36,731 nt of DNA from Bacillus sp. FJAT-27245 (GTDB lineage Bacteria > Bacillota > Bacilli > Bacillales > Cytobacillaceae). A program made the translations under genes and the position numbers. The notes under the pieces are model-generated. The model saw only the letters and a program-made list of their open reading frames with translations, was not told the DNA's origin and did not search any database. This document shows positions 9,178 through 29,750 of this stretch, in pieces (within the stretch, counting starts at the first letter, position 1; each line of letters starts with the position of its first letter). Location of the stretch: assembly GCF_001273955.1 (NCBI RefSeq), contig NZ_LIGI01000001.1, positions 1,546,656 through 1,583,386 of the forward strand. Reading direction: 5' to 3'.

Positions 9178-9189
9178 GGAGGAATGGGA

Positions 9190-10071
9190 ATGTCCTCACT
9201 TTCCGAGTTTCAACTTTTATCCGTACTGGCACAGGAAATGAATATGCGCAAGGCGGCCGAGCGGTTGTTCGTTTCCCAGCCTGCCCTTAGCCAGCGCCTT
9301 CAGTCCATTGAAAAGGAATGGGGCGCGAAGCTTTTTATCCGTTCGCAAAAAGGGCTTGCACTTACTCCCCAAGGTGAAGAAGTCATCCGGTTTGCCAATG
9401 GCGTCCTAGCCGAAGAGGAAAAGGTAAGGGAAGCCATCCACTCAATGGAATCCGGTGTGTCGGGAACACTTAAAATTGCAGTCGCAACCATTGTTGGACA
9501 GCACTGGCTCCCAAAGGTGCTGAAAAAGTTCATTGAGCGTTATCCCCAGGCGAAGATTTCGCTTGTGACCGGCTGGAGCAGCGAAATCCTTCGTTCGCTT
9601 TATGACCACCAAGTCCATATCGGCATTATACGCGGTGCGCCTGAATGGAAAGGGAAAAAGGTCCATTTGTTCGAAGACAGGCTGTTTCTTGTGGATAGGG
9701 AAATTTCGAACATGGAGCAGGTTCTTGAAACAGACCGGCCTTTTATCCAATTTAAGAGCGATTCGAATTACTATCAGGAAATCCAGGAATGGTGGCATCG
9801 CCAATTCAAGCTGCCGCCAAAGAGGACTGTTCTTGTCGACCAAATTGAAACATGCAAACAAATGGCCTTCAATGGCATTGGTTATGCAATCCTCCCGGAA
9901 ATCACACTCCATGGCGCCGGGGAGGATATTTTCAAGCTCCCGCTCCTTGATGAATGGAACCGGCCGATTAAACGGGACACATGGCTTCTTGGGTATGAAT
10001 CCTCGTTTGAACTAAAACAAGTCAGGGCGTTTACGGAGTTGATGCTGGAACATATTAATGATGGGAAGTAA
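9190..10071 (+). CDS. ccpC: LysR-family regulator CcpC (TCA-cycle repressor)
   Basis: This 293-residue LysR regulator has an N-terminal winged HTH (about 1-60, with MRKAAERLFVSQPALSQRLQ) and a substrate-binding-like effector domain. The effector domain shows IGQHWLPKVLKKF, KISLVTGWSSE, VHIGIIRG, PFIQFKSDSNY, VDQIETCKQMAFNGIGYAILP and RDTWLLGYE. Those segments match B. subtilis CcpC (YkuM), which represses citZ and citB and is relieved by citrate. The length is identical. GGAGG (9178-9182) is 7 nt before the ATG at 9190; the ATG at 9184 is too close. A CcpC-type box sits directly upstream. As in related bacilli the gene follows darB, but with an MFS gene between. Confidence 0.9.
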   Translation: MSSLSEFQLLSVLAQEMNMRKAAERLFVSQPALSQRLQSIEKEWGAKLFIRSQKGLALTPQGEEVIRFANGVLAEEEKVREAIHSMESGVSGTLKIAVATIVGQHWLPKVLKKFIERYPQAKISLVTGWSSEILRSLYDHQVHIGIIRGAPEWKGKKVHLFEDRLFLVDREISNMEQVLETDRPFIQFKSDSNYYQEIQEWWHRQFKLPPKRTVLVDQIETCKQMAFNGIGYAILPEITLHGAGEDIFKLPLLDEWNRPIKRDTWLLGYESSFELKQVRAFTELMLEHINDGK

Positions 10072-10143
10072 CGTATTTTTTCTTGTTTTCAAACAGGCGG
10101 TCTGTTAGCGTATTTTTCAAATATGCATCTTGGAGGAAAACCA

Positions 10144-10948
10144 ATGAAAATGATGGACGCCAATGAAATTATTTCGTTTATTCAAAACTCGAAGAAATCC
10201 ACTCCAGTAAAGGTATATATATAAGGCGATAATGAAGGAATGGAAGCCTGATATGATTGTATCGCTCCATATCGCCCCCGAATACCCGGTAGGAACGGTG
10301 GCGCTTAAAGAAGGGCTGCTGTTCGCCAATACATCGGAGTTGTTTATTGATTTGACAGGAAAAGGAGGGCATGCAGCATTTCCGCACTAGGCAAACGACA
10401 TGGTTGTCGCTGCCTGCTATCTTGTATCCCGGCTTCAGACAATTATTTCACGCAATGTTGACCCGCTCGATAGTGCCGTGATAACCATCGGCAAAATCAC
10501 CGGAGGAACGGTACAAAACGTGATTGCTGAAAGGGCTAGGCTTGAGGGGACGATTAGGACCTTGTCACCCGAATCAATGAAAACAGTCAAAAGAAGGATT
10601 GAGGCCATAGTAAAGGGGATCGAGGCGGGGTTTGAATGCGAAGCGGCCATCGATTACGGTGCCATGTACCATCAGGTTTTCAATCATCCTGGGCTCGCAA
10701 CTGAATTTTTCGACTTTGCATCGGCTTTGGACGGGGTAGAAGCAGTCCGCTGCAAGGAGGCGATGACGGGTGAAGATTTCGGCTATATGCTGAAGGAGAT
10801 ACCCGGATTCATGTTCTGGCTTGGGGTCAATTCACCAAACGGCCTCCACCACTCCGGGCTAATGCCCGATGAAGCTGCGATACCCCTGGCCATCCGCCTG
10901 CTAAGCGGGTACATTTCTTTAAAATCCGGGCCAAAGGACAAGCCATGA
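10144..10948 (+). pseudogene. Decayed dapH-dapL fusion (acetylase diaminopimelate route)
   Basis: The 5' end, from a GGAGG site (10132-10136) and ATG 10144, encodes [16 protein letters not shown] and KSTPVKVYI. This is the N-terminus of DapH, tetrahydrodipicolinate N-acetyltransferase. The next codon is TAA (10222-10224) where DapH normally has Lys, and GGC GAT follows in frame. Within a few bases the sequence turns, in another frame, into the C-terminal two thirds of DapL, N-acetyl-diaminopimelate deacetylase: [40 protein letters not shown], then a TAG (10388-10390), then [12 protein letters not shown] to [18 protein letters not shown]. About 200 residues of DapH and 150 of DapL are therefore deleted, the join is out of frame, and there are two nonsense codons. 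The M20 metal site of the N-terminal half is gone, so no activity is expected. An open frame from ATG 10400 (182 codons) remains but encodes only the tail. In relatives dapH-dapL follow ccpC. Confidence 0.9.
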
Positions 10949-11190: not shown

Positions 11191-11739
11191 ATGCCGGAAC
11201 GTATGGTAGGAAAACAAGCACCGCGATTTGAAATGGAAGCAGTACTGCCGAACAAGGAGTTTGGAAAAGTAAGCCTTGAAGAAAACATGAAAAACGACAA
11301 GTGGACTGTTCTTTTCTTCTACCCAATGGATTTCACTTTCGTATGCCCGACCGAAATTACGGCTCTTTCAGATCGTTATGATGAATTCGAGGATCTTGAT
11401 GCCGAAATCATAGGCGTATCTACCGACACAATCCATACCCATCTTGCCTGGATCAAAACAGATAGGAAGGACAATGGCCTTGGCGATTTGAAATATCCGC
11501 TTGCTGCCGATACGAACCATGTTGTATCCCGCGATTACGGAGTGCTGATTGAAGAAGAAGGCGTCGCGCTTCGCGGCCTGTTCATTATCAGCCCGGAAGG
11601 CGAATTGATGTACCAGGTAGTCAACCACAACAATATTGGCCGTGATGTAGATGAAACCCTCCGCGTCCTGCAGGCTCTTCAAACTGGCGGACTTTGCCCG
11701 GCAAACTGGAAGCCAGGCCAAAAAACTCTTAGCGTTTAA
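11191..11739 (+). CDS. ykuU: Typical 2-Cys peroxiredoxin (YkuU)
   Basis: A 182-residue peroxiredoxin of the AhpC/TSA type that reduces peroxides with a thioredoxin-like partner. The peroxidatic cysteine is in FYPMDFTFVCPTEI (C52) and the resolving cysteine in GGLCPANW (C169). The sequence matches B. subtilis YkuU. GGAGG stands 7 nt before the ATG. It is driven by a near-consensus SigA promoter and followed by a terminator, then ykuV, a thioredoxin-like oxidoreductase that is the likely partner by neighbourhood. The ykuS and mscS-like ykuT genes that precede ykuU in B. subtilis are missing here. Confidence 0.94.
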   Translation: MPERMVGKQAPRFEMEAVLPNKEFGKVSLEENMKNDKWTVLFFYPMDFTFVCPTEITALSDRYDEFEDLDAEIIGVSTDTIHTHLAWIKTDRKDNGLGDLKYPLAADTNHVVSRDYGVLIEEEGVALRGLFIISPEGELMYQVVNHNNIGRDVDETLRVLQALQTGGLCPANWKPGQKTLSV

Positions 11740-29568: not shown

Positions 29569-29581
29569 ATAAATAAATTAC

Positions 29582-29595
29582 ATTAAGCGCTTACA
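29582..29595. promoter_or_regulatory. cre-like CcpA site downstream of the SR1 -10
   Basis: On the minus strand TGTAAGCGCTTAAT matches the cre consensus TGWAANCGNTNWCA at all but the last two positions. It covers the first transcribed bases of SR1, a roadblock position. A poorer cre-like palindrome is at 29454-29469. Confidence 0.55.
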
Positions 29596-29624
29596 TTCTA
29601 CTAATCTTAAGGGAGTCGATCAAC

Positions 29625-29750
29625 ATGGGAACAATTGTATGCCAAACTTGCAATTCAACGATTGACCATTTCGAAGATGAAAAAGTGACAGTCCTTTACT
29701 CAAAATGCACGTGTGATAAATGCCATACCCGCAAGGATGATGAACTGTAA
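29625..29750 (+). CDS. sr1P: SR1P peptide (GapA-binding)
   Basis: A 41-residue peptide reading MGTIVCQTCNSTIDHFEDEK and then VTVLYSKC, close to B. subtilis SR1P, which binds glyceraldehyde-3-phosphate dehydrogenase GapA and promotes its action with RNase J1. Cysteines occur as CxxC (C6, C9) and CxCxxC (C28, C30, C33), suggesting a zinc knuckle. AAGGGAG (29609-29615) is 9 nt before the ATG. It is embedded in the SR1 RNA. rnjA, for the RNase J1 partner, is about 11 kb upstream in the same window. Confidence 0.9.
   Translation: MGTIVCQTCNSTIDHFEDEKVTVLYSKCTCDKCHTRKDDEL

What the first reader, a model, noticed from the sequence alone, without database searches (positions are those of the whole stretch)
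10144..10948. Relic of the acetylase diaminopimelate pathway: out-of-frame dapH-dapL fusion
DapH residues 1-26 (with an intact ribosome binding site) are joined to the C-terminal two thirds of DapL. There are two nonsense codons (TAA 10222-10224 at a normally Lys codon, TAG 10388-10390) and a frame change at the join. The junction reads sensibly in both frames over TGAAGGAATG (DapH-like GDxEG, DapL-like MKEW), suggesting deletion across a short microhomology. Both enzymes of a pathway considered central to lysine and cell-wall synthesis in bacilli are lost at this locus. The cell must therefore use another route (Ddh, DapC/E type, or second copies) or import.
Basis: partly seen in the sequence, partly recalled or inferred. 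Interest (0 to 1): 0.75.

Follow-up and report, generated by a model that had tools for sequence, protein, structure and literature searches.

The report
Dying lysine pathway replaced by shortcut
This Bacillus-family bacterium has recently broken the three genes special to its ancestral route to a cell-wall and lysine building block, and it carries a one-step enzyme, probably spread between species, that can make the same product; relatives show the same swap at several stages, so it is a real and instructive example of a known kind of replacement rather than a new kind of system.

Summary
Window 10144-10948 holds dapH codons 1-26 behind a good ribosome binding site, a TAA, an out-of-frame join near 10230, and dapL from about residue 139 with one TAG. 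The closest relative (Neobacillus piezotolerans) has both genes intact; 1126 bp are missing here. No second dapH or dapL was found in the genome. The third gene of that branch, patA, 14 kb away, has lost its first 85 or so codons, so DapH, PatA and DapL are all broken; native dapF survives. In 193 family genomes dapH is missing in 17 of 28 with ddh and 3 of 165 without; of those three, one has an LL-DAP-aminotransferase/dapF tandem, two are incomplete drafts. Four species of the genus show four different decay states; the sister species has ddh and an intact acetylase branch. ddh has shifting neighbours and a tree that does not follow genera, i.e. it moves laterally. A kin-corrected test had too few pairs to decide. 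A known kind of event in an unusually clear snapshot.

The parts
9184..10071 (+). ccpC, LysR-type regulator, intact upstream anchor of the locus
   Evidence: NF058504 515 bits over cut-off 400; conserved neighbour in relatives
10132..10136 (+). ribosome binding site GGAGG of the former dapH
   Evidence: sequence
10144..10229 (+). dapH remnant: codons 1-26 open, TAA at codon 27 (10222-10224), dapH-like up to about 10229
   Evidence: tblastn E 2.3e-11; per-base comparison with 58 dapH orthologues
10229..10231 (+). deletion junction (1126 bp missing relative to N. piezotolerans); 1-2 shared bases by the fewest-changes reading
10232..10948 (+). dapL remnant (N-acetyl-diaminopimelate deacetylase), from residue 140 to the end; lacks the HACGHD (from 90) and PAEEG (from 123) motifs of the intact relative
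   Evidence: tblastn E 1.8e-134, 87% identity; motif positions; Pfam M20_dimer and part of Peptidase_M20 in 10400-10945
10388..10390 (+). in-frame TAG inside the dapL remnant (Gln in N. piezotolerans)
11191..11739 (+). peroxiredoxin gene, intact downstream anchor
   Evidence: AhpC-like, 160 bits, below the TIGR03137 cut-off of 272; 94-97% identical in G001, G002 and G006

Best explanation
Recent loss of the acetylase branch of diaminopimelate synthesis after replacement by Ddh. The ancestor of this Neobacillus group made meso-diaminopimelate by DapH, PatA, DapL and DapF. A laterally moving ddh gene entered, giving a one-step route from tetrahydrodipicolinate to meso-diaminopimelate and making those genes redundant. 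In this species a 1126-bp deletion joined dapH to dapL out of frame, and two nonsense mutations arose; patA, at another locus, lost about its first 85 codons. DapF is still intact, and the remaining DapL sequence still shows the codon-position pattern of a working gene, so the break is young. Shown here: the relics, the intact ddh, a sister species holding both routes, parallel losses, signs of lateral movement of ddh. Inferred: that Ddh supplies the cell's diaminopimelate, and the order gain-then-loss.
For: Relic. No dapH over cut-off in the genome (0 of 12 matches; the three best were read and are other acetyltransferases). Only the relic answers a DapL search at E <= 1e-90. Intact ddh at C1:280071-281054: TIGR01921 477 bits (cut-off 180.6), PDB meso-DAP dehydrogenase 3wyb at E 2.7e-158. 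patA truncated here and internally deleted in G006; at that locus it is broken or absent in 11 of 11 dapH-less genomes read (7 of them one genus) and intact in 5 of 5 dapH-bearing ones where the locus was covered (a sixth, G034, was not covered). Family table, 193 genomes: dapH-/ddh+ 17, dapH-/ddh- 3, dapH+/ddh+ 11, dapH+/ddh- 162; Fisher p 2e-14, not corrected for kinship. Genus, 8 genomes: all 4 dapH losses have ddh. Sister G002 has both. Different remnants in the four losers; G000 and G007 keep mutually exclusive parts of dapL. Lateral movement of ddh: G005-G096, different genera, 93.5% in ddh against 71.2% in ccpC; varied neighbours; tree not following genera; GC3 0.33 against 0.400-0.586 in 28 window ORFs. 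Young: changes private to the dapL relic by codon position 8, 3, 32 against 14, 5, 32 on the intact sister's branch; neutral share estimated 0.00-0.10, upper limits 0.23-0.39.
Against: No experiment shows that Ddh is expressed or is the source of diaminopimelate. The genome also has two aminotransferases that NCBIfam names LL-DAP aminotransferase (L217, L218) plus an intact dapF, so a second route is formally possible. The kin-corrected test is inconclusive: 3 independent pairs on well-supported branches (9 on all branches), median p 0.5. G012 and G023 (and G013, which has no ddh) keep a dapL although dapH is gone, so the branch does not always decay as a unit. G027 and G189 lack dapH and ddh; both are incomplete drafts (94% and 66%). 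The DNA upstream of ddh is itself AT-rich (GC 0.35 against 0.46 for the window), so ddh's low GC3 may partly be regional. No clean empty site for ddh was found. The genes before and after the branch (dapA, dapB, lysA, murE) were not searched for.
Confidence: 0.88

Rival explanations
1. LL-diaminopimelate aminotransferase route: one of the two aminotransferases (L217, L218) makes LL-DAP directly and the retained DapF epimerises it, and this, rather than Ddh, made the acetylase branch dispensable.
For: L217 passes NF006756 (545 over 507) and L218 passes NF005815 (557 over 545), both named LL-DAP aminotransferase; dapF is intact (205 bits over cut-off 115). A tandem of a PRK06290-type LL-DAP aminotransferase and a non-native dapF exists in other genomes of the family, including G013, which lacks both dapH and ddh.
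Against: L217 misses the TIGR03540 equivalog cut-off (544 of 593) and lies between a D-serine ammonia-lyase gene and an aldehyde dehydrogenase gene, so it looks catabolic. G001, G030 and G057 have an L217 relative but no dapF match at E 1e-15, so the route cannot finish there. None of the five best of this genome's nine TIGR03540 matches, read with NCBIfam, is of the PRK06290 type. L218's distribution was not traced.
Confidence: 0.08
2. Assembly or sequencing error: the deletion and stops are not in the organism.
For: Reads could not be examined.
Against: Two separate loci of the same three-gene branch are broken in this assembly (5 contigs, 99.99% complete), and three other species of the genus have lost the same genes by other breaks.
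Confidence: 0.02
3. The 182-codon DapL fragment (10400-10948) is still made and kept for some other function.
For: No frameshift in about 720 bases and a codon-position pattern like that of a working gene.
Against: It lacks the HACGHD and PAEEG motifs; a young break predicts the same pattern; the other losers keep other pieces of dapL, or none; the nearest GGAGG lies about 31 bases before 10400, too far for an ordinary start.
Confidence: 0.02

Closest known systems
Acetylase (N-acetyl) branch of diaminopimelate/lysine synthesis, Bacillus type (DapH, PatA, DapL, DapF)
   Same: dapH-dapL lie between ccpC and a peroxiredoxin gene in intact relatives, as recalled for B. subtilis ykuQ-ykuR (B. subtilis order recalled, from no call); patA lies some 14 kb upstream
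   Different: all three branch-specific genes are broken here; only dapF is intact
meso-diaminopimelate dehydrogenase (Ddh) pathway, first found in Bacillus sphaericus, Corynebacterium and Brevibacterium (PMC4176475, passages)
   Same: full-length Ddh over the curated cut-off; according to that paper one reaction circumvents the four acyl-pathway enzymes. No lysine riboswitch near ddh, as reported for Bacillales (PMC5584792, passages)
   Different: sits in a genus where half the species held still have dapH, with the old genes still visible as relics and native dapF still intact
Genomes with two diaminopimelate routes (Bacteroides fragilis and Clostridium thermocellum, Ddh plus LL-DAP aminotransferase; PMC4176475, passages)
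   Same: two routes coexist in 11 of 193 genomes here (dapH and ddh), among them the sister species
   Different: here the coexisting pair is Ddh plus the acetylase branch, and the window's species has passed on to loss
Alternative lysine-pathway variants counted in gut genomes (PMC9026213, passages)
   Same: acetylase, succinylase, LL-DAP aminotransferase and Ddh variants are listed as alternatives, with gene displacement and loss discussed
   Different: the passages seen list end states; here relics and a two-route sister show the change under way

Membership tests
Pseudogene (decayed dapH-dapL) | disabling changes relative to intact orthologues | tested here: met
   TAA, TAG, 1126-bp deletion and frame change against intact copies
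Pseudogene (decayed dapH-dapL) | relaxed selection in the remnant | tested here: inconclusive
   dapL pattern still that of a working gene, neutral share 0.00-0.10 with upper limits 0.23-0.39, hence a young break
Acetylase-branch genome | intact DapH over the TIGR03532 cut-off | tested here: not met
   0 of 12 matches over cut-off in the own genome
Acetylase-branch genome | intact PatA (NF005817) and DapL | tested here: not met
   PatA matches profile positions 86-381 of 387 only, 498 of 575 bits; DapL relic only
meso-diaminopimelate dehydrogenase (TIGR01921) | full length, over curated cut-off, C-terminal domain PF16654 | tested here: met
   477 bits over 180.6; PF16654 260 bits over 30; 3wyb E 2.7e-158
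meso-diaminopimelate dehydrogenase (TIGR01921) | catalytic activity in this organism | not testable with these tools
   needs an assay
LL-diaminopimelate aminotransferase route | aminotransferase over the TIGR03540 equivalog cut-off | tested here: not met
   best 544 of 593.25; two other NCBIfam models with that name are passed
LL-diaminopimelate aminotransferase route | intact DapF | tested here: met
   205 bits over 114.65, no stops
Succinylase route | DapD | tested here: inconclusive
   TIGR00965 not run; of the 12 hexapeptide matches the three best were read and are maltose-type, heptaprenylglyceryl-phosphate and serine acetyltransferases

The most novel reading that the evidence does not exclude
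In this bacterial family a single small, laterally moving gene (ddh) repeatedly displaces an entire conserved cell-wall branch: after it settles, dapH, dapL and patA decay at two loci, then native dapF is lost or exchanged. The 193 genomes hold every stage (acetylase only, both, fresh relics, clean loss, loss of dapF), and a second tandem (LL-DAP aminotransferase, dapF, mostly with glnA) does the same in parallel. It would be a natural series for measuring how fast a redundant essential pathway is discarded.
Probability: 0.5. Interest if true: 0.55.

Novelty: new member of a known kind. Interest (0 to 1): 0.42.

Why it matters
Diaminopimelate synthesis is needed for the cell wall, and the acetylase branch is the common route in bacilli. 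The locus catches its replacement in progress, with a sister species still carrying both routes, and offers a ready comparison for testing when a redundant route becomes free to decay. It also warns that annotation by analogy with B. subtilis would wrongly credit such strains with the acetylase route.

Tried and rejected
Second intact dapH or dapL: not found. Hexapeptide matches to the DapH model, read for three of 12 (L001-L003): other acetyltransferases. Plasmid or phage carriage of this ddh: only distant relatives (5 plasmid records under 60% identity, 5 uncultured phage records at 35-64%), so no vector is named. RNA control of ddh: no lysine riboswitch in six ddh neighbourhoods, only two purine riboswitches. 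Promoter scan at ddh: one 11-of-12 site at L190 8008-8036; total count (4) not clearly above shuffles (mean 3.5, sd 1.4). Empty site of ddh, near-identical G003 (no ddh) against G005 (ddh): in G003 only a 64% match to one flanking stretch, so the flank is missing as well and no clean empty site was shown. Independent-pairs test: too few pairs; the same without the drafts G013 and G027. Long microhomology at the join: less parsimonious than a join at 10230. Literature: seven searches; no title or listed abstract start deals with loss of dapH or dapL in ddh-bearing bacilli. Listings were capped (20 shown of 52, 39 and 117), and only open-licence texts are held. Passages were seen in PMC7424261 (nothing used), PMC4176475, PMC5584792 and PMC9026213; no paper was read whole. 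Older work on Bacillus sphaericus was seen only as citations. Rows dropped: 4 of 90 genomes (G010, G011, G014, G052) gave no ccpC long enough for the tree; G034 did not cover the patA locus.

Full report
What is there. The window comes from a 4.6-Mb genome in 5 contigs (C1:1546656-1583386), 99.99% complete. Its closest named relative at this locus is Neobacillus piezotolerans YLB-04 (ccpC protein 94% identical). Between ccpC (9184-10071) and a peroxiredoxin gene (11191-11739) lies the relic: a good ribosome binding site, dapH codons 1-26, TAA at codon 27, a join near 10230, and dapL from about residue 139 to its natural end with one TAG. In N. piezotolerans dapH (236 codons) and dapL (377 codons) are intact at the same place. 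Of 81 loci compared (80 relatives and the window), 70 hold both genes near full length; of the other 11, L040 and L045 are cut by contig ends and the window is one.

The junction. Each base was compared with 58 dapH and 70 dapL orthologues aligned without gaps. Apart from variable third positions, dapH agreement stays high through 10229 and falls to 0.03 and 0.00 at 10231-10232; dapL agreement is 0.59 at 10231 and 0.94-1.00 at 10232-10233. From the coordinates the missing piece is 1126 bp relative to N. piezotolerans.

No spare copies. The DapH model finds 12 matches in the genome, none over its cut-off, the last being the relic. The DapL search at E <= 1e-90 finds only the relic.

The bypass. 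ddh lies at C1:280071-281054: 328 codons, 477 bits to TIGR01921 (cut-off 180.6), with the DAPDH_C domain, closest solved sequence 3wyb. The dehydrogenase route makes meso-diaminopimelate from tetrahydrodipicolinate in one step and circumvents the four acyl-pathway enzymes (PMC4176475, passages seen).

A second broken locus. patA, the aminotransferase of the same branch (NF005817), lies about 14 kb upstream of dapH, 3.7 kb outside the window. In this genome it matches profile positions 86-381 of 387 only; in G006 about 256 residues in the middle are gone. Between conserved neighbours it was not found in G001, G007, G057, G028, G029, G061, G046, G041 and G031, and is intact in G002, G003, G004, G005 and G033. 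So 11 of 11 dapH-less genomes read there (4 of this genus, 7 of another) have no intact patA at this locus, against 5 of 5 intact in dapH-bearing ones; G034, also fetched, did not cover the locus. Only the syntenic place was read in the relatives, not their whole genomes.

Decay states in the genus. Of 8 genomes, dapH is present in G002, G003, G004, G005 and absent in G000 (this one), G001, G006, G007; ddh is present in all but G003 and G004. At the locus, G000 keeps dapH's start and dapL 139-375; G006 a match to dapL 235-256; G007 dapL 19-82, with no peroxiredoxin gene in the stretch read; G001 nothing recognisable. G000 and G007 keep parts that the other lacks, so their deletions are separate events, although a shared earlier point mutation is not excluded. 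G002, sister of G000 in the ccpC tree (support 91), has ddh and intact dapH, dapL and patA.

Family-wide pattern. Of 193 genomes, 28 have ddh and 20 lack dapH. The table is 17 (dapH-/ddh+), 3 (dapH-/ddh-), 11 (both), 162 (dapH only) (recounted); Fisher p 2e-14, and 0.017 when counted by genus. Neither follows the tree. On a ccpC tree of 86 genomes (30 chosen for ddh or dapH status or genus, the rest a hand-picked part of the dapH-bearing ones), dapH status changes at least 9 times and ddh status 13 times. Independent pairs on well-supported branches number only 3; ddh typically goes the same way in 2, the other way in 0 and does not differ in 1, median p 0.5. That test neither confirms nor refutes. 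Of the three exceptions, G013 carries an LL-DAP aminotransferase and a dapF in tandem; G027 (94% complete) and G189 (66%) stay unexplained.

dapF. DapF is not found in 7 of the 17 dapH-/ddh+ genomes against 5 of the other 176 (Fisher p 7e-6). Five more of the 17 (G023, G029, G031, G041, G046) have as their single match a different dapF: those of the other four are 69-71% identical to that of G029, and all five are 29-32% identical to the native one of this genome. In four of the five it follows an LL-DAP aminotransferase gene (G023's contig ends there), and in all five glnA follows. G051 and G058 have a dapF about 27-31% identical to either type. Native-type dapF thus survives in 3 of 17, all in this genus (G000, G006, G007); for G006 and G007 this rests on bit scores.

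Lateral movement of ddh. Nucleotide identity of ddh far exceeds that of ccpC across genera (G005-G096 93.5 against 71.2%) and is lower within one genus (G155-G156 69.8 against 77.6%). Neighbours differ between genera and partly within this genus. In the ddh protein tree this genus mixes with another, and three genera share one deep branch (quick method, few starred branches). Inside the genus, ddh of G000 is nearer to G001 (92.1%) than to its sister G002 (88.7%), so exchange after arrival is likely. GC3 is 0.33, below the 28 longest non-overlapping window ORFs (0.400-0.586; the set holds the relic's own ORF and one antisense to the peroxiredoxin gene), but the DNA upstream of ddh is AT-rich too (GC 0.348), so composition alone is weak.

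Age of the break. Changes private to the dapL relic fall 8, 3, 32 on codon positions (outgroup G004), like the intact sister branch (14, 5, 32) and ccpC (8, 3, 33); the neutral share is estimated at 0.00-0.10 with upper limits of 0.23-0.39. For patA the figures are 7, 11, 48 against 14, 8, 44 on the sister branch, or 9, 14, 39 against 12, 5, 43 with G003 as outgroup: second positions make up 17-23% against 8-12%, so patA may have been relaxed somewhat earlier. Most divergence of dapL from the sister predates the break.

Rival. Two aminotransferases pass NCBIfam models named LL-DAP aminotransferase. L217 lies among catabolic genes, is found in all 8 genus members whatever their dapH or ddh status, and is missing in 11 of 17 dapH-/ddh+ genomes (73 of the 193 genomes searched). 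It does not explain the losses, but with dapF intact it could contribute in this strain.

Verdict. A true, young, multi-gene relic, best explained by pathway replacement. Both the Ddh bypass and exchange of lysine-pathway variants are known kinds; the value lies in the clear stages and in the second broken locus.

Noticed in passing
L136 249-3791 (G029); also L299, L300, L301 and, without glnA in the stretch fetched, L297 (G013): Tandem of a PRK06290-type LL-diaminopimelate aminotransferase, a non-native dapF and mostly glnA: a second replacement route in this family, present together with ddh in four genomes and alone in G013, which has neither dapH nor ddh.
   Followed up: partly
L225 5395-6315 (G000 C1:1542050-1542970, 3.7 kb upstream of the window): patA lacks about its first 85 residues; in G006 (L310 2228-2590) about 256 residues in the middle are gone. 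Used in the main argument.
   Followed up: yes
window 29572-29718: SR1 small RNA (RF02376, 46.2 bits over gathering 45), a marginal match.
   Followed up: no
L302 and L303 (G051, G058): dapF genes only 27-31% identical to both the native and the tandem type: a further kind of epimerase gene in dapH-less genomes.
   Followed up: no
L178 1196-2305 after reverse complement (G023); G012: dapL kept although dapH is gone and ddh present, so DapL may have another role there or decay lags.
   Followed up: no
L177 52-937 (G018): ccpC of this dapH-less, ddh-bearing genome has stops and a frame change, so the neighbouring regulator looks broken too.
   Followed up: no
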